Shown: positions 21,154 through 44,510 of the stretch, in pieces | How the letters are laid out: each line of letters starts with the position of its first letter | How positions within the stretch are numbered: the stretch's first letter is position 1 | Assembly: GCF_000367365.1 (NCBI RefSeq) | Contig: NZ_BARF01000001.1 | Span: 1-45,279 of the forward strand | From: Streptomyces prunicolor NBRC 13075 | GTDB lineage: Bacteria > Actinomycetota > Actinomycetes > Streptomycetales > Streptomycetaceae | DNA: 45,279 nucleotides | Direction of reading: 5' to 3' | Notes under the pieces: generated by a model | What the model was told of the DNA's origin: nothing | What the model saw: the letters and a program-made list of their open reading frames with translations, nothing else | The model's database searches: none | Position numbers and translations under genes: made by a program

Positions 21154-22176
21154 ATGGAGACCCCGCCGCAACTCACCCTGGGTCGGCTGTTCTCCTCGTG
21201 GCAGGCGGACGTCCCCGCGCTGCTGGTCGTCGTACTCCTCGGCGGCCTGTACGGCTGGGGCGTCCTGCGCCTGCGGCGGCGCGGCGAGGCCTGGCCGGTG
21301 GCGCGGACCGCCGCGTTCGCGCTGCTCGGCCTCGGCACGATCGTCGTCGCGACGATGTCCGCGCTCGCCGTCTACGACCGCGTGCTGTTCTGGCCGGCCG
21401 CCGTCCAGAACGTCCTCCTGGACCTGATCGCCCCGCTCGGCCTGGCCCTGGGCGATCCGCTACGGCTGGCTCTGCGCGCCCTGCCCGAACGTGCCGCCGC
21501 CCGCGCACAGGGGGCGATGACCGGCCGACTGTTCCGGCTGCTCACATTCCCGCTGGTCAGCACGGCCCTGGTGCTGGCGACGGAGCTGACGATCTACTTC
21601 ACGCCGTACTTCGAGACGGCCCTGGCCGACAACTGGCTGCACCAGCTGATGTATCTCCATCTGCTGCTCGCCGGGAGCCTGTTCGTGCTGCCGGTGCTCA
21701 CCCGCGAGGAAGCGCTGCCCTCCTGGTGCACGCATCCGGTGCGGGCGGGGCTGGTGTTCGTCGACGGGATCATCGACGCGGTACCGGGCATCGTGGTGAT
21801 GACCCACGGCACGCTGATCGCCGGGTCCTGGTATCTCAGCCACTCCCCGTCCTGGGCCCCGGACGTCCAGCACGACCAGCAGCTCGGCGGCGGCGCGATG
21901 GTCAGCATCGCCGAACTGGTCGCCCTCCCCTTCCTCCTCGCGATCCTGGCCCAGTGGGCCCGCACGGAACGCGCCGAGACGGTCGCGCTGGACCGGCGGC
22001 TGGACAGTGAGCTGGAAGTGGTCCGGGCGACGCCCGCGGAGGCCTCGACGGGGACGGCGACGAGGGCTGCGACGGGAGCTGAAACGGGGACTTCTACTGA
22101 AGGGCCCGATCTCGTACGCCCCTGGTGGGAGACCGAGAACAGCGAGGTCGCGCAGCGCATCCGGGGACAGCGGTAG
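21154..22176 (+). CDS. CtaG/caa3-type cytochrome c oxidase assembly membrane protein
   Basis: 340 residues with about seven membrane helices (for example ALLVVVLLGGLYGWGVL, AAFALLGLGTIVVATMSAL, LFRLLTFPLVSTALVLAT, LMYLHLLLAGSLFVLPVL, MVSIAELVALPFLLAILA). Family marks are the His-containing WLHQLMYLHLLLAGSLF and VDGIIDAVPGIVVMTHGTLIAGSWY...SPSWAPDVQHDQQLGG. Family members help insert copper into cytochrome oxidase. GGAGG lies 9 nt before the ATG. The C-terminus carries a Thr/Ala-rich repeat (TGTATRAATGAETGTST). The CopC-CopD gene a few kb away suggests, but does not prove, a copper link. Confidence 0.85.
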   Translation: METPPQLTLGRLFSSWQADVPALLVVVLLGGLYGWGVLRLRRRGEAWPVARTAAFALLGLGTIVVATMSALAVYDRVLFWPAAVQNVLLDLIAPLGLALGDPLRLALRALPERAAARAQGAMTGRLFRLLTFPLVSTALVLATELTIYFTPYFETALADNWLHQLMYLHLLLAGSLFVLPVLTREEALPSWCTHPVRAGLVFVDGIIDAVPGIVVMTHGTLIAGSWYLSHSPSWAPDVQHDQQLGGGAMVSIAELVALPFLLAILAQWARTERAETVALDRRLDSELEVVRATPAEASTGTATRAATGAETGTSTEGPDLVRPWWETENSEVAQRIRGQR

Positions 22177-24633: not shown

Positions 24634-24661
24634 CCGCCTACCGCCTACCGCCTACCGCCTA
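24634..24661. repeat. 7-bp tandem repeat, 4 copies, at the end of the copC-copD gene
   Basis: CCGCCTA four times plus a partial copy; the TAG stop (minus strand) of the next gene lies in the last unit. Confidence 0.9.
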
Positions 24662-26650
24662 CCGCACGATCCGCACCTGCCGCGACACGCTCACCTGATC
24701 CACGTCGGTCGTCCTGACCGTGACCTTCATCGTCCAGGTCCCGGCGATCGGCAGGTTGAGGGAGTTGGTCCCCCAATAGCCGCCCTCGTCCTTGACGTCG
24801 GCGTCGAGCGGGCCGATCTTCTGGGCCGCGAGGGTGAAGGAGAGGCGGAGTTCGGGGACGGTGGCGAAACCGCCGTCGGGGCCGTAGACCACCGCTTCGA
24901 CGGAGTTCAGGCCGACGCGGCCGGGGTCGAGGGTGATCTGCACCTTGCCGCCGGCGTTGCCGACGCGGAAGGGGACGATGGTGACCGAGGCCGCCGGTAT
25001 GCCGGCCGGTGTCGCCGTCTGCTGCGCGTCCGCCGCGGCCCGGCCCGGGAGGGTGTTGGTCAGCAGGGTGGTGATCACCAACACCACGACACCGACGCCG
25101 ACTTCGAACAGCACCGAGCGACGCAGACCGCGCCGGTACCGGTCCTGGGAGTCGTCGCCCTGGTAGCGATTCTGGGAGCCGTCACCCCGGTCCTGCTCCT
25201 GAGATCCGTCACCGGGATTCGAGGCGCCCTCGCCGTCACCATCGCCATCATCACCGGCACCGGCACCGGCACCGGCACCGGTGGAAACCGTCACCGCCCC
25301 GTCCGCCCCCGTCGCCGCCCCCGCCCGCACCAACTCCGGTACCCGGAGCCGCACATCCGCCCCCACCATCCGCCCCGTCCACTGCCGCGACCAGCCCGCC
25401 ACCGCGAGCAGCAGCACCACCGCGCCGAGCTTCACCAGCAGGATGCGGCCGTACGACGTGCCGGTCAGGGCGTTCCAGGAGCCGAGGCCGCGCCAGGACT
25501 GGTAGACGCCGGTGACGACGAGCACGGTCACCGAGGCGAAGGCGAGGCGGGAGAAACGGGCCACCGGAGCCGCGTCGAGGTCCGGTGAACGGTAGAGGAC
25601 GGTGAGCAGGGCCGTCAGACCGCCGAGCCACACCGACATCGCGAGCAGATGCAGCACCGCCGACGTCATCGCCACCGGCACCTGGATCCCGGCGGACGCG
25701 TGCTCCGCCGACGCCCAGGTCAGCGCCAGCCCGACCGCGAGGACGGCACCCGTCCCCAGGGCCACCCGTCCGAACCGCTCCCGCCCCCGAAGTCGTAGGA
25801 GAAAGAAGGCTGTTGCGGCGGTCAGCAGCACCCGGGCCGCAAGTGCCAGGCCGGGGCGGGAAGTCAGCGTCTTCGGGATGGCGGAGGGTTCGAAGGCCGT
25901 GGCCAGGCCGGTGCCCGCCTCGTAGGGGGCCCGGAGGATCAGGAGGACGACCGTGGCCGCCAGCAGGGTCCACCAGCCCATCAGGATCGGCTTGTTGAGG
26001 ACCGACGGGTTCGGGGGGCGGCACAGGGCGACGAAGGTGGCCGTGCCGATGAGGAGGGCCGCGGCTATGTAGGCGAAGTAGCGGGCTATGTCGTACAGGC
26101 TGGCCGTGAGGGGGTCCTCGGTCGGGGCCGTGGCGATCGGGGTGGTCGTGGCCGAGGGTTTGCCGATGGAGAAGGTGAAGGCGCCCGAGACCGGGTGGCT
26201 GTCCGCCGAGACCACGCGCCAGGCGACCGTGTAGGTGCCCGTGCCGAGCTTGGCCGGGAGGGTGACGCTCGCCGTGTCCCCGGCGTCCTTCGCGTGGTGC
26301 GCCGAACTCGTCCTCACCCGCCGGTTGTCGGGATCGTAGACGCGGAAGGAGTCGTCGAGCAGGGCTACGGACTCGGAGAAGGTCAGGGTGACGGTGCGGG
26401 GGGCGGACTTGAGGACGCTGCCGTCGGCGGGGTCGGTGGATTCGAGGGCGGCGTGCGCGGACGCGGTGCCCGCGGTGCCGAGGAGGAGCAGGACCAGCAG
26501 GGAGCCCAGCAGCACCAGCCCTTGAACTCCTCGCCGACCGACCCGGCCGGCCTGGTCGACCCGGCCGCCGCGTCCCCCGCCCTCGCCTCCGCCGCTGCTT
26601 CCGCCTCCGTCGTGTCCAAAACCCTGATCCTCATTCCGTCGTCGGCGCAC
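24659..26650 (-). CDS. CopC-CopD fusion copper resistance/import protein with YtkA-like tail
   Basis: 663 residues from GTG at 26650 (GGAG 7 nt upstream). A Gly-rich leader and signal segment (GLVLLGSLLVLLLLGTAGTASA) end at mature HAALESTDPADGS, placing the copper-binding His at the mature N-terminus; the second site DSHPVSGAF follows. Eight or so membrane helices of CopD come next (IARYFAYIAAALLIGTATFVAL, ... GRILLVKLGAVVLLLAVAGWSRQW), then a low-complexity loop (TGAGAGAGAG, DGDGDGEG, SQNRYQGDDSQDRY repeats), another helix and a C-terminal YtkA-like beta domain (VTIVPFRVGNAGGKVQITLDPGRVG...). Located in the cell membrane. Copper handling is inferred from the family. Confidence 0.9.
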   Translation of the reverse strand: MRRRRNEDQGFGHDGGGSSGGGEGGGRGGRVDQAGRVGRRGVQGLVLLGSLLVLLLLGTAGTASAHAALESTDPADGSVLKSAPRTVTLTFSESVALLDDSFRVYDPDNRRVRTSSAHHAKDAGDTASVTLPAKLGTGTYTVAWRVVSADSHPVSGAFTFSIGKPSATTTPIATAPTEDPLTASLYDIARYFAYIAAALLIGTATFVALCRPPNPSVLNKPILMGWWTLLAATVVLLILRAPYEAGTGLATAFEPSAIPKTLTSRPGLALAARVLLTAATAFFLLRLRGRERFGRVALGTGAVLAVGLALTWASAEHASAGIQVPVAMTSAVLHLLAMSVWLGGLTALLTVLYRSPDLDAAPVARFSRLAFASVTVLVVTGVYQSWRGLGSWNALTGTSYGRILLVKLGAVVLLLAVAGWSRQWTGRMVGADVRLRVPELVRAGAATGADGAVTVSTGAGAGAGAGDDGDGDGEGASNPGDGSQEQDRGDGSQNRYQGDDSQDRYRRGLRRSVLFEVGVGVVVLVITTLLTNTLPGRAAADAQQTATPAGIPAASVTIVPFRVGNAGGKVQITLDPGRVGLNSVEAVVYGPDGGFATVPELRLSFTLAAQKIGPLDADVKDEGGYWGTNSLNLPIAGTWTMKVTVRTTDVDQVSVSRQVRIVR

Positions 26651-26713: not shown

Positions 26714-27487
26714 TCACCATGCGGGCCGCGCGGACACTCCGCCGTCCACGACCAGGTCGTGCCCGGTGACCCAGGACGCGAGGGAGGACGCCAGGAAGAC
26801 GCACGCGTCGCCCACGTCCTCCGGCCGCCCCAACCGCCCCGTCGGTGCCGCCTCCCGCCACCTCCGCACGCCGTCCGGCCAGGCCTCCGCCAGCCCCTCC
26901 CGGTCGATCAGACCGGGCGAGACCGTGTTGACGCGGATGCCGTACGGGCCGTACTCCAGGGCCGCCGACCGCGCGTGCATGACGACGGCCGCCTTGGACG
27001 CGGAGTAGTGCGCGTGCAGCGCGGCCGGGGCGCTCGCCTCGATCGACGCGATATGCGTCACCGTGCCGCCGCCAACGCCCTGCTCTCTCATCACCTCAAC
27101 CGCCGCCTGCGTGCACGCGAAGACGCTGGTCAGGTTGGTGTCGACGACCGCCCGCCAGTCCGCCGCCGTCATCCCGGGCAGGGGTTGCGTCGGCTGTACG
27201 CCCGCGTTGTTGACCAGCGCCGTCAGCCGCCCGCCGCTCCACTCGGCCGCCTCACGGACCAGCCCCCGGCAGGCGTCCTCGTCGGTCAGCTCGGCCTGCA
27301 GTACGACGGAACGGGCGCCCAACTCCCGTACGCGCGCGGCGACTTCACCGGCCGCCTCCACCCCCGTACGACAGTGGACCGCGACCCCCGCCGCCCCCTC
27401 CTCCGCGAACCGCAGCGCGATCCCCCGGCCGATGCCGCCGCTCGCGCCCGTGACCAGGGCGAACTGGCCCTCCAGCAGGCGGCTCAC
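26714..27487 (-). CDS. Short-chain dehydrogenase/reductase
   Basis: 257 residues from GTG (VSRLLEGQFALVTGASGG), whose first bases overlap the cupin stop (GTGA). Cofactor motif TGASGGIG, NNAG, catalytic Ser in IASIEAS, YSASK (Tyr/Lys) and PG near residue 185 are complete. C-terminal ITGHDLVVDGG-type motif (VTGHDLVVDGGVS). Classical SDR of the FabG type; NADPH preference is likely from CRTG after strand 2. Substrate unknown; translated together with the cupin. Confidence 0.92.
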   Translation of the reverse strand: MSRLLEGQFALVTGASGGIGRGIALRFAEEGAAGVAVHCRTGVEAAGEVAARVRELGARSVVLQAELTDEDACRGLVREAAEWSGGRLTALVNNAGVQPTQPLPGMTAADWRAVVDTNLTSVFACTQAAVEVMREQGVGGGTVTHIASIEASAPAALHAHYSASKAAVVMHARSAALEYGPYGIRVNTVSPGLIDREGLAEAWPDGVRRWREAAPTGRLGRPEDVGDACVFLASSLASWVTGHDLVVDGGVSARPAW

Positions 27488-27975
27488 GGGCGGCACAGCC
27501 CGGTGATGCGGGCGGCCTCGGCCGGGGAGTGGGCGTAGCGGGCGGTCAACTCGCCCGCGTCGCCGTGCTCGTAGCCGCCGTAGGTGAAGCCGGGTGCCAT
27601 CGTGCAGCCGAAGAACGTCCACGCGCCGCCCGCCGCCACCCGCGCCCCCATCCAGGTGCCGCCCGGCACGGTGAACTGGAGGTGCTGGCCGCGCAGGATG
27701 TCCGGCCCGAGGACCGCCGTGCGCGACGTACCGTCCGGGGCGAGGAGCAGGAGTTCGAGCGGGTCGCCGAGGTGGAAGTGCCAGACCTCGTCGCCGGGCA
27801 GGCGGTGCAGGGCCGAGTAGTCCGCCGCTGTCAGCAGGACGACGATCGCCGTGCCCGCCGGGCGGCCGTCGGGCAGCTCCGGGCCCGCCCAGGTACGGCG
27901 GAACAGGCCGCCCTCGCGGGGGATCGGCTCCAGGCCGTAGTGGGCGACGAGGTCTTCTGGGGTCACTCCGGTCAC
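27484..27975 (-). CDS. Cupin protein, DUF985 (Cupin_5) family
   Basis: 163 residues beginning VTGVTPEDLVAHYGLEPIPREGGLFRRTW, a family hallmark. Cupin metal-ligand pattern HRLPGDEVWHFHLGDPLELLLL and C-terminal GGTWMGARVAAGGAWTFFGCTMAPGFTYGGYEHGD. Possibly sugar-epimerase related; exact reaction unknown. GTG start 9 bp from the acylase stop. Coupled to the SDR gene by GTGA. Confidence 0.9.
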   Translation of the reverse strand: MTGVTPEDLVAHYGLEPIPREGGLFRRTWAGPELPDGRPAGTAIVVLLTAADYSALHRLPGDEVWHFHLGDPLELLLLAPDGTSRTAVLGPDILRGQHLQFTVPGGTWMGARVAAGGAWTFFGCTMAPGFTYGGYEHGDAGELTARYAHSPAEAARITGLCRP

Positions 27976-27984
27976 GTCGGCAGG

Positions 27985-30714
27985 CTACGGGAAGGCCACC
28001 TCGCGAGGGAGAAACGCCAGCTGAGCGCGCTTTTCGGGGATGAACACGTCCGGGATGTCGACCTCCGGCAGGACGACCCTCGGCCCCGCCACGAACCCCT
28101 GCCGCAGGAACCGCGCGATCGCCTTCTCGTTCCGTACATCCGGGTCGACCACGATCCGGCGCCGGCCCAGACCGAGCAGCACGTAGGAGGCGAGGGCGCC
28201 CATCAGCGCCGCCGACCAGCCGGGCCGCTCGCCGTCCGGTCCGGGGGGCGCGAGCAGGAGGTGGATGCCGATGTCTCCGGGTGCTACGGCGTAGCAGTCG
28301 CCGACGCGGTCGGCCGCGGGGTCGTAGGTCTGGAGGAGCGCGACGGGTTCGTCGTCCCGCAGCACCAGGTGGGCGTGGTGGGTGTCGAGGGTGTCCATGT
28401 GGGCGTAGATCTCGGCGACTTGGGCCTTTGTGAGGCCGTTCATGCCCCAGAACGCGGCGCGTTGCTCACTGACCCAGCGGTGGATCGTCCCGGCGTCGGC
28501 GGCCGGGTCCAGAGGGAGGACGCGGACGGTGCCGAAGCCGTCGATGTGTTGTTCGTGGAGGACGGGTCGGCGAGCAGGTGTGCCGGTTTCAGCTGTGCCG
28601 GTCTCGGGTTCGAGGCGGGTGAAGTCGGTGATCACCGGGACCAGATCTCCCTTGAGCCACAAGGGCAGTTGATCGCGGTGGTGCGGTGAACCGGGCACCC
28701 CCGACGCCCCGAACGGCACCACCCACAGGCTGTCCTCCCGCCGCGCCAGATCCCACACGAAGCGAGCCGCCGGGCCCCGCGCGCTCAGGTCGGTGAGCCC
28801 GGGGACGGAGGAGGTGCACAGCACGCAGTCGTGGTCGCCGGACAGGCCAGGGGCGGGAGTTGGGGTCTCGCCGAACGCCCTCCAGGGTGCGAGGCGATGA
28901 GTGTCACCCCACACACCGGCCGGTGTTGCGGCGGCGGCTTCCTCGACCGCGGCCCGTACGATTTCCGACCGGTCGATGCCGTACAACTCCCGTGCCCGCA
29001 GCAGGTGTTCGAGCGCGAAGGCGACGCGGGGCAGCAGTGCGAGCCACGGCAGGAACACCTCCGGGTACGCGGACGGCTCGGCCAACGCGGCGAACGCCGG
29101 GTGCGCCGCGAGCCGTCGTACGACCGCGCCGCGTACGGCCGCGTAGGCGGCGGCGTCGGTGCTGTCGGCGTCCATGCGGCGGTCCCAGTTCAGCAGCCGG
29201 TCGCGGAGCGCGGAGGCCTCGGGGGTGAGGTCGGTGAGTGCATCGAGTTGATCCAACAGGGGTGTGGCTGAACCGAGTTGGGTGTCCATGTGGATCGCGG
29301 GCATGTCGGCGGCGGACCAGTGCTCGCGCTCGGCGAGCAGTGCGGTGATGCGGTCGGCGCGGTGGTTCGGGGCGAACTCGACGCCGAGCGGGGTGGCCGG
29401 GCCGCGCTGGTTGGCCATGACGGCGACGCCGTCGTCCGACAGCCCTCCGCGAGGCGGCCGGTGCCAGCCGTTCCACTCATGACCGGGTTCCCAGGCGGGG
29501 ACGAGCCGGGTGCGGTTGGCCTCGGCGCGGATCGGCACCCGGCCCGCGACCCGGTGCAGCAGGCCGCCCTCGGTGTCGGCGGCCTGGACGACGTTGACGG
29601 GTTCGGCCCAGTCGTCGAACGCCCGGTCCACGTCGGCGACTTGGCGGGCGCGGAGGAGGGGAAGGAGTGCGGTGAAGCCGAGGTCGTCGGTGACGCGGGG
29701 CGGGTAGCGGAGGCTGATGGCGAGGGGCGGGATGTCAGGCGGGGCGCTGATACCTCCGTCGAGTCCTTCCGGCCCGCCGATGATGCCTCCGTCAAGCCCT
29801 TCCGGCCCGCCGATGACGACCGGCCCGCGTTCGGTCTCGATCACTTCAACCTCGACGGGCTCCTCTCCGGCTACCTCGATGGTCTCCGTGTGCCTGGCGG
29901 CGCGGCGCCAACTCCCGTCCGGGCCAAGGGCTTCCACCCCGGCGCCGGTGCGGCGCAACCGTTCCCGGTAGAGGTCCTGGTAGTCGGCCATGGCGTTGGT
30001 GATGGCCCAGGCGACCGTGCCGGTGTGTCCGAAGTGGGCGATACCGGGGACGCCGGGCACGGTGAGGCCGACGACGTCGAACTCCGGGCAGGAGAGGTGG
30101 ACTTGCTGATAGACACCGGGGTCCTCGATGAAGCGGTGCGGATCCCCGGCGAGCACGGCCCGCCCGGTGGTGGTCCGCGCCCCGCTCACCAGCCAGCCGT
30201 TGCTGCCGGAGGTACCGGGCCCATCGGTGGCGAACAGCCCTACGGCATCCGGCCCGAGGTGCCGTACTGCTTCCTCGCGCCAGAGCTTGGAGGGAAACCC
30301 TGCGAACAGGATGTGGGTGGCCAGCCAGACTCCGAGGGGGGTCCAGGGCTCCCAACGGCCGGGAGTGGGGCCGGACTTGGCGAACTCGGGAGCAGCGCTC
30401 GCGGCCAACCCCTCGTTGACCCCGTCGACATACGCCCGGACCCAGCGCGCGGTCTCCGGGTCCCGCTTCTCCAACGCGGCGAAGCACCGCCTGGCCGTGT
30501 TGTCGAGGCGGACGCGGCGGGCGAAGAGATCCCAGGGCAGGGCGCCCGTACCGAGAAAGGCGGCCGAGGTGCCCCGCGCCCGATGCCGTTCGACCTCGAT
30601 CTGCCGGCCGCGGTCGAGGGCGGTGACGCGGCCCTGGGCGTGGGCGAGCTCGTCGGCGCTGTCGGCGCGCAGGTGGGGGATTCCCCAGGTGTCGCGGTAG
30701 ATCTGGGTCGTCAC
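27985..30714 (-). CDS. Penicillin-acylase family protein fused to a siderophore-type N-acetyltransferase
   Basis: 909 residues from GTG at 30714 (VTTQIYRDTWGIPHLRA); a TTG at 30735 is an alternative. Residues 1-730 form an Ntn-hydrolase of the penicillin acylase family: alpha chain start IYRDTWGIPHLRA, then GSNGWLVSG with Ser171 as the likely autocleavage nucleophile and GDPH following. The last 180 residues are a GNAT domain of the IucB-like (Acetyltransf_8) kind (HRWVSEQRAAFWGMNGLT...GDIGIHLLLAPP...VVDPDVRNEKAIARFLRQGFVAG), the family that acetylates hydroxylysine or hydroxyornithine-type amines. No signal peptide. A 30-bp duplication (GGPEGLDGGI twice) lies near residue 310. An iron box lies 46 bp upstream, so iron limitation should induce it. 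Confidence 0.85.
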   Translation of the reverse strand: MTTQIYRDTWGIPHLRADSADELAHAQGRVTALDRGRQIEVERHRARGTSAAFLGTGALPWDLFARRVRLDNTARRCFAALEKRDPETARWVRAYVDGVNEGLAASAAPEFAKSGPTPGRWEPWTPLGVWLATHILFAGFPSKLWREEAVRHLGPDAVGLFATDGPGTSGSNGWLVSGARTTTGRAVLAGDPHRFIEDPGVYQQVHLSCPEFDVVGLTVPGVPGIAHFGHTGTVAWAITNAMADYQDLYRERLRRTGAGVEALGPDGSWRRAARHTETIEVAGEEPVEVEVIETERGPVVIGGPEGLDGGIIGGPEGLDGGISAPPDIPPLAISLRYPPRVTDDLGFTALLPLLRARQVADVDRAFDDWAEPVNVVQAADTEGGLLHRVAGRVPIRAEANRTRLVPAWEPGHEWNGWHRPPRGGLSDDGVAVMANQRGPATPLGVEFAPNHRADRITALLAEREHWSAADMPAIHMDTQLGSATPLLDQLDALTDLTPEASALRDRLLNWDRRMDADSTDAAAYAAVRGAVVRRLAAHPAFAALAEPSAYPEVFLPWLALLPRVAFALEHLLRARELYGIDRSEIVRAAVEEAAAATPAGVWGDTHRLAPWRAFGETPTPAPGLSGDHDCVLCTSSVPGLTDLSARGPAARFVWDLARREDSLWVVPFGASGVPGSPHHRDQLPLWLKGDLVPVITDFTRLEPETGTAETGTPARRPVLHEQHIDGFGTVRVLPLDPAADAGTIHRWVSEQRAAFWGMNGLTKAQVAEIYAHMDTLDTHHAHLVLRDDEPVALLQTYDPAADRVGDCYAVAPGDIGIHLLLAPPGPDGERPGWSAALMGALASYVLLGLGRRRIVVDPDVRNEKAIARFLRQGFVAGPRVVLPEVDIPDVFIPEKRAQLAFLPREVAFP

Positions 30715-30759
30715 CCGGTGGCCCTTCTCTTTCAAGACTGCCTGTCTCGCGGCTGCCTT

Positions 30760-30778
30760 TTAGGTTAGCCTTGCCTAA
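30760..30778. promoter_or_regulatory. DmdR/IdeR-type iron box
   Basis: TTAGGTTAGCCTTGCCTAA matches the actinobacterial iron-box consensus TTAGGTTAGGCTCACCTAA at 16 of 19 positions. It lies between the divergent acylase fusion (46 bp from its start) and the siderophore-interacting protein gene (41 bp before its start). Confidence 0.88.
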
Positions 30779-30818
30779 GTTACTGGTGCGGAAAGCGTAC
30801 GCGAAAGGTGAAGAGACC

Positions 30819-31532
30819 ATGGCGCAGGGGCGCGGTTGGGAGGGCGCGGTTCTCAAACTGCTGCGCGCGAAGGACTTCGAGTTCACGGTGACGAGGGCGG
30901 AGGACGTCACCCCGCACTACCGCCGCCTACGCCTCACCGACGGCGGCATGCTCGCGGCGACCGGCGTCCACCCCACGATGTGGGTCCGCCTCTGGTTCGA
31001 CAACGCCGGCAGGCCGCACCAGCGGGCGTACACCCTGGTCGACCCCGACCCGGCGGCCGGCACGTTCGCCCTCGAATTCGCCCTGCACGAAGGCTGCGCC
31101 AGCGACTGGGCCCGCTCCGCGAAGCCCGGCGACACCATCGAGGCGACGGTCCAGGGCACGGGCTTCGAGGAACCCACCCCGCCCCCGACCCACCTCTTCG
31201 CGATCGGCGACCCGGCGTCACTGCCGGCCATCAACTCCCTTCTGGAAACGGTGGGTTCGGCGACCCCGGCGACGATCTGGTTCGAGAGCGGAACCGAGGG
31301 CCTGCCGTTCCGCACCGACCCGGCACTGCACGAGGTCCGCCACCTCTCCAGGGGCCAACTCGCCGACCAGGTACGGACGGAACTCCCCGACCTGCTGAAG
31401 GACAGCACCGACCCGTACGTCTGGATCACCTGCGACACGGCCACGACGCGGGGGCTGTCGTCGTACGTACGCAAGGAGCTGGGGGTGCGGCGGGAACGGG
31501 TGCACGCGCTGGGGTACTGGCGGGCTTCCTGA
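30819..31532 (+). CDS. Siderophore-interacting protein (FAD-dependent ferric reductase)
   Basis: 237 residues from ATG (MAQGRGWEGAVLKLLRA). N-terminal FAD-binding barrel with RAYTLVDPDPAAGTFALEFALHEG..ASDWARSAKPGD, then the NAD(P)-like SIP domain with AIGDPASLPAINSLLE and WITCDTATTRGLSSYVRKELG. Such proteins reduce ferric siderophores in the cytosol to release iron. The iron box upstream places it under the iron regulator. Divergent partner is the acylase/acetyltransferase fusion, suggesting both act on the same siderophore. A little shorter than ViuB relatives but complete. Confidence 0.93.
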   Translation: MAQGRGWEGAVLKLLRAKDFEFTVTRAEDVTPHYRRLRLTDGGMLAATGVHPTMWVRLWFDNAGRPHQRAYTLVDPDPAAGTFALEFALHEGCASDWARSAKPGDTIEATVQGTGFEEPTPPPTHLFAIGDPASLPAINSLLETVGSATPATIWFESGTEGLPFRTDPALHEVRHLSRGQLADQVRTELPDLLKDSTDPYVWITCDTATTRGLSSYVRKELGVRRERVHALGYWRAS

Positions 31533-31574: not shown

Positions 31575-31921
31575 CTACCCAAGAGGGTGCTGGTAGCGCA
31601 GCTTGTTGAGAGAGGCCCCGCCCGTGGTGTCCTCCACGGCTGCGCCGTCCGCGCGCCAGCCGGCGGCTTCGTAGAAGCGGCGGGCGCGTTCGTTGTCCTC
31701 CAGGACCCACAGGGTGGCTTGCGTGTAGTCGGCCTGTCCGAGCGTCGTCAGCGCGGCCAGCATCAACTGCTTCCCGATCCCGGTGCCCCAGACCTCTGGG
31801 GTCGCGACAGCGTGCCGATTTCGGCGGTGGCAGGGGTCTCCTGGGACGGGCCGAAACCTGCGAATCCGACGACCCCCGCCTCGGTTTCGGCCACTCGTGC
31901 GGAGTTCGCGCAGCCCGCGGG
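31575..31921 (-). pseudogene. GNAT acetyltransferase fragment, frameshifted and 5'-truncated
   Basis: The C-terminal half reads ATPEVWGTGIGKQLMLAAL...ATLWVLEDNERARRFYEAAGW, the acetyl-CoA-binding core of a GNAT. The preceding block (ARVAETEAGVVGFAGFGPS...ATAEIGTL) lies in a different frame; deletion of one base near 31804-31812 (EIGTL[Y] ATPEVW) explains the switch. A TGA stands just before it and the expected N-terminal strand is missing. It is the 3' neighbour of the SIP gene on the opposite strand. Not functional as read. Confidence 0.7.
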
Positions 31922-32059
31922 TCAGGGCTCCCCACGCCGGTATGCCGAGCGGCCACGGTCCACAGAACACCGCAGATGCCCGCACTCCAGCATCCGGACT
32001 CCAACGCCACGTGCGCCCACCGGCAGGCACCCCCCGCCCGCACGCGCCATCATCGACCC

Positions 32060-32656
32060 ATGGACGCAACCCTTCACCTCGCCCAGGACCCCGCCGCCGA
32101 CGAACTCCTCGGCCGTTCCCCGCTCGCCGCGCTGGTGGGGATGCTGCTCGACCAGCAGGTGCCGATGGAGTGGGCGTTCAAGGGGCCGCGGACGATCGCC
32201 GACCGGCTCGGGGCCGCCGATCTGGACGCGCACGAGATCGCGGCCCGTGACCCCGAGGCCTTCGCCGCGCTGCTCTCCGAGAAGCCTGCCGTGCATCGCT
32301 ACCCGGGTTCCATGGCCAAGCGGATCCAGCAGCTGTGCCAGTACCTCGTCGAGCACTACGACGGGGACGCGAGCGGTGTCTGGGCGGGTGTCGGAACCGG
32401 GGCCGAGCTGCTCAAGCGGCTGGAGGAGCTGCCCGGGTTCGGGAAGCAGAAGGCGCAGATCTTCCTCGCCCTGCTCGGCAAGCAGCTCGGGGTCCAGCCG
32501 AAGGGCTGGCGCGAGGCCGCGGGCGCGTACGGCGAGGCGAGGTCCTACCGCTCCGTCGCCGACATCACCGGACCCGAGTCGCTGGCCAAGGTCCGCGCCC
32601 ACAAGCAGGAGATGAAGGCCGCGGCCAAGGCGGCGAAGGCGGCGGGCGGCAAGTAG
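32060..32656 (+). CDS. HhH-GPD-type base-excision DNA repair protein
   Basis: 198 residues from ATG (MDATLHLAQDPAADELL). Helix-hairpin-helix signature LEELPGFGKQKAQIFLALLGKQ at about 125-145 and LVGMLLDQQVPMEWAFKGP near the N-terminus match actinobacterial small glycosylase-like proteins. Basic Ala/Lys tail (AAAKAAKAAGGK) may bind DNA. The catalytic Asp expected in the GPD segment is not obvious (GWREAAGAYG), so base specificity is uncertain. Monocistronic by appearance. Confidence 0.88.
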   Translation: MDATLHLAQDPAADELLGRSPLAALVGMLLDQQVPMEWAFKGPRTIADRLGAADLDAHEIAARDPEAFAALLSEKPAVHRYPGSMAKRIQQLCQYLVEHYDGDASGVWAGVGTGAELLKRLEELPGFGKQKAQIFLALLGKQLGVQPKGWREAAGAYGEARSYRSVADITGPESLAKVRAHKQEMKAAAKAAKAAGGK

Positions 32657-42324: not shown

Positions 42325-42463
42325 TTATGCGTCTTATGAACCAATTTGCCATTCAACACGGCGTAACACGGTGATATGCGGTGCTTGCACACAGTGCACA
42401 TGTGTTGTGATGCTATGACCGCTATTGACGGATGAGTTGACCGATGAAGAGGTGGCGTTGACC

Positions 42464-43288
42464 GTGTCGGCCAGTACTGCGCCGCCCCAGGAAGTCACGG
42501 AAGCCCCGCCGGCCGCGCCCCGCAGCCGCGGCGCGGACACCCGGGCCCTCACCCAGGTGCTGTTCGGCCAGCTCAAGGGACTCCAGCCGGGTACGCCGGA
42601 GCACAACCGCGTGCGTGGGGCGCTCATCGAGGCGAACATCCCGCTCGTGCGCTACGCCGCCGCCCGCTTCCGCTCCCGCAACGAGCCGATGGAGGACGTC
42701 GTCCAGGTCGGCACCATCGGTCTGATCAACGCCATCGACCGCTTCGACCCGGACCGGGGAGTGCAGTTCCCGACGTTCGCGATGCCGACCGTCATCGGCG
42801 AGATCAAGCGGTACTTCCGCGACAACGTCCGTACGGTCCATGTCCCGCGCCGGCTGCACGAGTTGTGGGTGCAGGTCAACGCGGCAACCGAGGATCTGAC
42901 GACCGCCTTCGGGCGCACCCCCACCACCGGCGAGATCGCCGAGCGGCTGCGCATCGGCGAGGACGAGGTGCTGTCCTGCATCGAGGCCGGCCGGTCGTAC
43001 CACGCGACCTCCCTGGAGGCCGCCCAGGAGGGCGACGGACTGCCCGGCCTGCTGGACCGGCTCGGTTACGAGGACCCGGCCCTGGACGGCGTGGAACACC
43101 GCGACCTCGTCCGGCACCTCCTCGTCCAACTCCCCGAGCGGGAACAGCGGATCCTGCTGCTGCGCTACTACAGCAACCTCACCCAGTCACAGATCAGCGC
43201 GGAACTCGGCGTCTCCCAGATGCATGTCTCGCGGCTCCTCGCCCGCAGCTTCCAGCGACTGCGCTCCGCGAACCGCATCGAGGCGTAG
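42464..43288 (+). CDS. sigF: RNA polymerase sigma factor SigF (SigB/SigF family)
   Basis: 274 residues from GTG ([16 protein letters not shown]), chosen because it aligns with the SigF start I know from S. coelicolor; upstream TTG/GTG codons are alternatives. Region 2 ([36 protein letters not shown]...[19 protein letters not shown]), region 3 and region 4 ([45 protein letters not shown]) are complete. In Streptomyces this factor acts late in spore maturation. Located next to a second SigB-type factor in the same order as in S. coelicolor (sigF then sigN). Anti-sigma genes are not adjacent. Direct repeats of CGTAGCACCGCGTC follow the stop. Confidence 0.88.
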
Positions 43289-43466: not shown

Positions 43467-43510
43467 GACATGTCGACATGTCACTACAGCGTGTTGCCGA
43501 CATGTGACAT
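43467..43510. promoter_or_regulatory. GACATGTC palindromes upstream of sigN
   Basis: A perfect 16-bp palindrome GACATGTCGACATGTC (43467-43482) and a related GACATGTGACAT 16 bp further (43499-43510). Located about 110-150 bp before the sigN start, inside the 331-bp gap 43289-43619, which otherwise holds no gene. Probably a regulator binding site. Confidence 0.65.
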
Positions 43511-43619
43511 TCTGCGGGAAGCGCGTTTGCCGAGGCCCAGGCTCCGGTATTCAGGTGAAGGCACCGCTCCCCAGACGGGGGCGATCGCCGCGACCGTCCC
43601 GCGACCCAAAGGGGGTGGC

Positions 43620-44510
43620 ATGTCCGCAGACCAGGGCAGCTCGAAGGTGCTCACGCTCACCAAGAGCGACGCTGAGCCCGCACTCGACGCCGTTACGGTC
43701 CTTGAGGCCGTACCCGCCGTACCGGCCCCGGCCCTCCCGACCACGGGAGCCATCGACACCCGCACCCTGTCCCGCTCCCTCTTCCTGCGGCTCGCCGCAC
43801 TCGACGAGAACAGCCCCGAGCGTGGTTACGTCCGGGACACCCTCATCGAGCTCAACCTCCCGCTGGTGCGGTACGCCTCGGCGCGTTTCCGCTCTCGCAA
43901 CGAGCCGATGGAGGACATCGTCCAGGTCGGCACGATCGGCCTGATCAAGGCGATCGACCGGTTCGACTGCGAACGCGGGGTGGAGTTCCCGACGTTCGCG
44001 ATGCCGACCGTCGTGGGCGAGATCAAGCGCTTCTTCCGCGACACGTCGTGGTCGGTGCGCGTCCCGCGGCGCCTCCAGGAGCTGCGGCTGGCCCTCACGA
44101 AGGCCAGCGACGAGCTCTCCCAGAAGCTGGACCGGTCGCCGACCGTCCCCGAACTCGCCGTGGTCCTGGGCGTGTCCGAGGAGGACGTCGTCGACGGCCT
44201 CGCGGTCGGCAACGCGTACACGGCCTCCTCGCTCGACTCCCCGGCTCCCGAGGACGACGGCGGCGAGGGCTCGCTGGCGGACCGTCTCGGCTACGAGGAC
44301 ACGGCGCTGGAGGGCGTGGAGTACCGCGAGTCGCTCAAGCCGCTGCTCGCCAAGCTGCCGCCTCGTGAGCGCCGGATCATCATGTTGCGCTTCTTCGCCA
44401 ACATGACCCAGTCGCAGATCGGCGAGGAGGTCGGCATCTCCCAGATGCACGTCTCCCGGCTGCTCACGCGCACCCTCTCGACCCTCCGCGAGGGCCTGAT
44501 CTCGGACTGA
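43620..44510 (+). CDS. sigN: RNA polymerase sigma factor SigN (SigB/SigF family)
   Basis: 296 residues from ATG ([20 protein letters not shown]), with GGGGGTGG 1-8 nt upstream. A 45-residue variable head is followed by region 2 ([36 protein letters not shown]...[19 protein letters not shown]), region 3 and region 4 ([48 protein letters not shown]). Clearly a paralogue of the neighbouring SigF (long identical stretches). The symbol is given by gene order beside sigF. In Streptomyces SigN is linked to aerial hyphae development. Regulation: the GACATGTC dyads upstream. Confidence 0.85.

What the first reader, a model, noticed from the sequence alone, without database searches (positions are those of the whole stretch)
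27985..31532. Iron-box-controlled fusion of a penicillin acylase with a siderophore-type acetyltransferase, divergent from a siderophore reductase
The Ntn-hydrolase half could remove an acyl group and the IucB-like GNAT half could add a new one, so one protein might edit acyl chains of hydroxamate siderophores, or salvage foreign siderophores before the divergent SIP protein takes their iron. A DmdR/IdeR box between the genes supports iron control. No complete siderophore synthesis genes are adjacent.
Basis: partly seen in the sequence, partly recalled or inferred. Interest (0 to 1): 0.75.

Follow-up and report, generated by a model that had tools for sequence, protein, structure and literature searches.

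The report
Fused acyl-swapping enzyme for desferrioxamine B
A bacterial gene joins an acylase and an acetyltransferase in one protein next to an iron-box DNA sequence; it corresponds to a published gene pair (desG and desH) and likely swaps a succinyl for an acetyl group on a building block of the iron-scavenging drug molecule desferrioxamine B, so it is a fused form of a known system.

Summary
One uninterrupted frame (27985-30714, minus, 909 aa) carries a penicillin-acylase-family (Ntn hydrolase) domain and an IucB/DesC-type GNAT domain. A palindromic iron box (30760-30778) separates it from a divergent siderophore-interacting protein (30819-31532). The order HhH-GPD / SIP / acylase-GNAT / Cupin_5 / SDR matches the published description of Streptomyces coelicolor SCO4047-4052, the desJGH locus (PLoS Biol 2025, PMC12161575). 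There, inactivating desG or desH cut desferrioxamine B about 1000- and 16-fold. That paper already reports desG-desH fusions and proposes that DesG de-succinylates N-hydroxy-N-succinylcadaverine and DesH acetylates the product. Added here: this genome holds a complete desEFABCD cluster with its own iron boxes; in 199 same-genus genomes desG was never found without desD (113 of 113 desG genomes have desD; 0 of 44 desD-less genomes have desG); at least 17 of the 113 are fused; the fused state needs 10 changes on a 90-row tree; a desG relative lying beside desD is identical to PDB 35sz. Verdict: new member of a known kind, modest interest.

The parts
27985..30714 (-). desGH fusion gene, 909 aa, GTG start; acylase half then GNAT half
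   Evidence: homologues fused likewise
28600..30714 (-). DesG half (residues 1-705), PF01804 Ntn-hydrolase acylase, no signal peptide apparent
   Evidence: AlphaFold2 model pLDDT 91.8
30202..30204 (-). codon of Ser171, predicted nucleophile and first residue of the beta chain (SNGW)
   Evidence: aligns with residue 1 of the beta chains of 35sz and 4hsr; invariant in 50 and in 87 aligned proteins
28075..28509 (-). DesH half: Acetyltransf_8 (PF13523) GNAT domain, IucB/DesC/MbtK type
30760..30778 (.). palindromic iron box (DmdR/IdeR-type consensus) between the two divergent genes
30819..31532 (+). desJ: siderophore-interacting protein (SIP), 237 aa, 30% identical to this genome's DesF over 188 aa
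32060..32656 (+). HhH-GPD protein, counterpart of SCO4047
   Evidence: gene order in the paper
27484..27975 (-). Cupin_5 protein, counterpart of SCO4051 (called sugar epimerase in the paper; the equation is mine)
26714..27622 (-). SDR dehydrogenase, counterpart of SCO4052 (longest ORF; the true start is probably near 27487)

Best explanation
By gene order and domains this is the desJ-desG-desH locus with desG and desH fused in one frame; the protein is predicted to cut itself before Ser171, its acylase would then likely take succinate off N-hydroxy-N-succinylcadaverine, and its acetyltransferase would likely put acetyl on the freed N-hydroxycadaverine, which would steer desferrioxamine assembly from E towards B. 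An iron repressor of the DmdR1 type is predicted to bind the box between the genes, so the fusion and the divergent SIP reductase would be made when iron is short, together with the separate desEFABCD cluster. After canonical processing the GNAT domain would stay attached to the catalytic beta chain (predicted chains about 18.7 and 79.7 kDa), so N-hydroxycadaverine would be released next to the acetyltransferase before DesC can re-succinylate it. Shown here: the fused frame, domains, Ser-Asn motif, box, gene order, full des cluster in the same genome, desG/desD association, recurrence of the fused state. Shown in print for the split S. coelicolor genes: effect of the mutants on DFOB and DFOE. 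Inferred: chemistry, processing, channelling and regulation of this protein.
For: Domains and motif; gene order equal to the published description of SCO4047-4052, with mutant phenotypes; desEFABCD in the same genome with iron boxes before desA (perfect) and desE (2 mismatches); 113 of 113 same-genus desG genomes have desD; outside the genus 27 of 32 do, and in 22 of those 27 the genes lie within 10 kb; box with at most 3 mismatches upstream of desG in 63 of 66 same-genus loci, control pattern 0 of 66; the DesG model is closest to D-succinylase and to a class III cephalosporin (glutaryl-type) acylase, ahead of penicillin G acylase and PvdQ; of three other acylases of the genome one is closest to D-succinylase, one to PvdQ, one to penicillin G acylase; no signal peptide or membrane stretch is apparent, as an acetyl-CoA enzyme needs; closest solved relative of the GNAT half is DfoC.
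Against: No enzyme assay exists here or in the parts of the paper that I read; de-succinylation is a proposal. Control acylase L014, not a DesG, also has D-succinylase as its best solved relative, so that nearness is not specific. The direct sequence of SCO4049/4050 was not compared. 5 of 32 desG genomes outside the genus lack desD and show no desH beside desG. 42 same-genus genomes have desD without desG, as expected only if they make uncapped DFOs, which was not checked.
Confidence: 0.75

Rival explanations
1. The acylase acts on aryl or fatty acyl groups, and the fusion makes aryl- or acyl-capped desferrioxamines instead of swapping succinyl for acetyl.
For: desG was first proposed to give phenylacetic-acid-capped derivatives (reported in the paper); PF01804 includes phenylacetyl and fatty-acyl enzymes.
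Against: The paper states that no arylated DFOs are known from S. coelicolor and that its desG mutant loses acetyl-capped DFOB; penicillin G acylase and PvdQ are further away in sequence and fold than diacid acylases.
Confidence: 0.1
2. The locus edits or salvages finished or foreign hydroxamate siderophores before the SIP protein takes their iron.
For: A SIP reductase gene is divergent from the same iron box; five genomes outside the genus carry desG without desD.
Against: In the 199 same-genus genomes desG was never found without desD (0 of 44 desD-less genomes); the five exceptions show no desH beside desG; the published desJ mutant makes more DFOB.
Confidence: 0.07
3. The fusion is neutral: the two domains work separately as in the split form and there is no channelling.
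For: In the split loci the two genes lie close together in one direction, so joining them needs only a small change; split forms outnumber fused ones in the genus (at least 17 fused of 113).
Against: The fused state has changed at least 6 to 10 times and persists in clades; in every split locus with both genes but one (L095) the genes are in different frames, so loss of a stop alone would not join them. Neither excludes neutrality.
Confidence: 0.4

Closest known systems
desJGH (SCO4048-4050) of Streptomyces coelicolor, PLoS Biol 2025, PMC12161575
   Same: Acylase, DesC-like GNAT and SIP paralogue of desF, DmdR1 control, same neighbours, separate desABCD cluster
   Different: There desG and desH are two genes; here one frame
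Fused desGH of Streptomyces atratus and Micrococcus CH3 and CH7 (same paper)
   Same: desG and desH in one gene
   Different: Another instance; sequences not compared here
DfoC (PDB 5o7o)
   Same: Best solved relative of the GNAT half, E 2e-20; a desferrioxamine acyltransferase domain in a larger protein
   Different: There the domain is in a 787-residue protein with the synthetase (layout recalled), not with an acylase
PDB 35sz, penicillin acylase family protein
   Same: Closest solved relative of the DesG half, deposited as alpha and beta chains, beta starting with Ser-Asn; identical to a desG relative beside desD in genome G228
   Different: No desH was found in the 6 kb fetched around it; about 42% identical; a linker between the chains that this protein lacks
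D-succinylase (7eby) and glutaryl-7-ACA acylase
   Same: Same Ntn fold; they remove dicarboxylic acyl groups (function from the names of the entries and recall)
   Different: About 25-35% identical in aligned parts; no GNAT domain
PvdQ
   Same: Ntn acylase in siderophore making
   Different: NCBIfam PvdQ model 34 bits against a cut-off of 950; periplasmic fatty-acid remover (recalled)

Membership tests
desJGH locus | PF01804 (desG) and PF13523 (desH) within 1 kb, the rule used in the paper | tested here: met
   both in one frame; rule
desJGH locus | gene neighbours HhH-GPD, SIP, Cupin/epimerase, dehydrogenase | tested here: met
desJGH locus | DmdR1-type box | tested here: met
   (sequence only; binding not tested)
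desJGH locus | desABCD in the same genome | tested here: met
desJGH locus | direct sequence comparison with SCO4048-4050 | not tested
   no named S. coelicolor sequence was fetched
desJGH locus | needed for DFOB production | not testable with these tools
   shown in print for the split genes only
Ntn-hydrolase acylases (PF01804) | fold and N-terminal Ser of the beta chain | tested here: met
Ntn-hydrolase acylases (PF01804) | autoproteolytic maturation | not testable with these tools
   inferred from 35sz and other relatives
PvdQ | NCBIfam equivalog cut-off | tested here: not met
   34 bits against 950
Penicillin G acylase or D-succinylase | substrate specificity | tested here: inconclusive
   fold and sequence favour D-succinylase and glutaryl-type acylases, but control L014 shows the same preference; controls L016 and L017 do not

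The most novel reading that the evidence does not exclude
DesGH is a self-cleaving bifunctional acyl-exchange enzyme: after autoproteolysis the acetyltransferase stays tethered to the catalytic beta chain and passes N-hydroxycadaverine straight from de-succinylation to acetylation. Evolution has built this same two-step machine by gene fusion several separate times in actinobacteria.
Probability: 0.4. Interest if true: 0.5.

Novelty: new member of a known kind. Interest (0 to 1): 0.3.

Why it matters
DFOB is the iron-overload drug deferoxamine, and a locus that decides between it and DFOE was described only in 2025. A natural single-chain desGH gives a compact enzyme on which to test the proposed de-succinylation and acetylation steps. 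The genome survey (desG only with desD in the genus sampled; repeated fusion) independently supports the published model and argues against a salvage role.

Tried and rejected
AlphaFold2 on the whole fusion with 50 close homologues gave a poor model (pLDDT 55.6) and was not used; the acylase half alone, in an 87-row alignment with more diverse rows, worked.

I expected nearness to D-succinylase to be specific for DesG. Controls were the other three PF01804 proteins of the genome: L014 also has D-succinylase on top, L016 has PvdQ, L017 has penicillin G acylase. My first searches with L016 and L017 were on the wrong strand, found nothing and are void; one search printed wrong-strand text for these two as well.

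The orphan desG genes outside the genus were looked at as possible salvage or degradation genes. Pfam of chosen neighbours: an FAD-dependent amine-oxidase-like gene near desG in G258, G316, G407 and G344, a histidine kinase in G258 and G344, and a tryptophan-dioxygenase-like gene in G507. My note took this whole group to lack desH; one search corrected that: G344, G390 and G335 have desH beside desG, G258, G316, G407, G507 and G578 show none.

In one search the SIP query was translated in a wrong frame; its SIP column was discarded and redone. My note says 13 box sites in the genome; a recount gives 12. Paper searches for penicillin acylase with siderophore and desferrioxamine (none), N-hydroxy-N-succinylcadaverine with acylase (one review on Shewanella, listing only) and nocardichelin or NcdE (nothing relevant among the 20 of 369 listed) did not help. 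The source and title of 35sz were not found; it is not among the rows shown.

Full report
What is there. The minus-strand frame 27985-30714 (GTG start behind AGAAGG; 909 aa) carries a full PF01804 acylase domain followed by a PF13523 GNAT domain. Third-position GC stays high through the join, and 24 homologues of 77-94% identity from other sources carry both domains. Ser171-Asn172 aligns with residues 1-2 of the beta chains of 35sz and glutaryl-7-ACA acylase. Divergent from it lies a SIP-family gene (30819-31532, plus), and between them the box TTAGGTTAGCCTTGCCTAA at 30760-30778, 0 matches expected by shuffling.

Identity. The order HhH-GPD, SIP, acylase, GNAT, Cupin_5, SDR is that described for SCO4047-SCO4052 of S. 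coelicolor in PLoS Biol 2025, PMC12161575. Of that paper I saw the outline and abstract, passages and sections 13 and 14 in full. SCO4048-4050 are desJ, desG and desH. Inactivating desG or desH lowered DFOB about 1000- and 16-fold and raised DFOE; inactivating desJ raised DFOB. The authors propose that DesG de-succinylates N-hydroxy-N-succinylcadaverine and that DesH acetylates the product, report desGH fusions in S. atratus and Micrococcus CH3 and CH7, and suggest that fusion exploits a high local concentration of the intermediate. So the finding is a fused desGH. It is the only paper that my searches for desG with penicillin amidase and desferrioxamine and for desGH with desferrioxamine returned. 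SCO4049 and SCO4050 themselves were not compared by sequence.

The rest of the pathway. The window's genome (11.76 Mb, 202 contigs) has desE-desF-desA-desB-desC-desD in a row on contig C184, with a perfect box before desA and a 2-mismatch box before desE. The box pattern at up to 2 mismatches gave 22 strand hits (12 sites) genome-wide; the reversed control gave 0.

Survey. Of 199 same-genus genomes, counting desG at best E under 1e-100 and desD at best E under 1e-200: both 113, desG alone 0, desD alone 42, neither 44; Fisher p 2e-20 (the genomes are related, so p overstates independence). I read the lists off the tables by eye and recounted them. Two genomes with weaker acylase hits (G012, 8.7e-73; G083, 4.0e-50) were counted as lacking desG; both lack desD. 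At least 17 of the 113 are fused, all 17 seen in fetched DNA. Of 354 genomes of other genera in the class sample (desG at 1e-60, desD at 1e-100): both 27, desG alone 5, desD alone 34, neither 288; 9 of the 34 match desD at only 37-38% identity and may be other synthetases. In 22 of the 27 the two genes lie within 10 kb on one contig (coordinates, compared by eye). The five exceptions show no desH in the DNA fetched around desG; neither does G228, which has desD.

Regulation. In same-genus loci with an intact desG start and at least 200 bases upstream, a box with at most 3 mismatches lies within 250 bases upstream in 63 of 66, control 0 of 66; in other genera 0 of 25 (91 of 98 distinct loci used, 7 dropped as partial or short). 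A SIP relative on the opposite strand was seen in 55 of 99 loci, on the same strand in none; the other 44 showed none in the DNA fetched.

Fusion history. On a tree of 90 DesG domains (22 fused, 68 not; 9 of 99 rows dropped as partial or duplicate) the fused label needs 10 changes, 6 of them forced by starred branches. Shuffled labels need 19.8 on average and none of 500 is as low, so the state is also inherited in clades. The tree is quick and unrooted with several long branches, and rows were chosen to include the fused cases, so it shows recurrence but neither direction nor prevalence. In the split loci with both genes the two genes are in different frames, except in L095.

Verdict. The acyl-editing idea is essentially the published model; the salvage idea is not supported. 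The fusion as such is already in print; what is added is this instance, its recurrence, the desG/desD association in the genus sampled, and the link to 35sz. Chemistry, processing, channelling and iron response of this protein remain inferred.

Noticed in passing
window 29749-29811: A 10-residue unit GGPEGLDGGI occurs twice in tandem (residues 302-311 and 313-322) in a loop of the DesG half that overlaps the low-confidence stretch 309-324 of the model.
   Followed up: no
window 31575-32069: A minus-strand ORF between the SIP gene and the HhH-GPD gene matches only the end of GNAT profiles (Acetyltransf_1 positions 68-116 of 116), perhaps a broken acetyltransferase gene.
   Followed up: no
L125, L126, L127, L128, L112 (genomes G258, G316, G407, G507, G578): DesG-like acylases without desH beside them in genomes without a desD match; three of them (G258, G316, G407) near an FAD-dependent amine-oxidase-like gene. 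Possibly a different function.
   Followed up: partly
L012 (C129) and L013 (C118): The window's genome has three further IucA/IucC-family genes: one on C129 near a second Acetyltransf_8 gene, and a divergent pair on C118, suggesting one or two more siderophore pathways.
   Followed up: no
window 42425-43288 and 43470-44510: Two sigma-70-family sigma factor genes lie in a row.
   Followed up: no
window 24659-26650 and 21154-22176: A protein with CopC and CopD domains together and a CtaG-family protein lie near the iron locus, suggesting copper handling.
   Followed up: no
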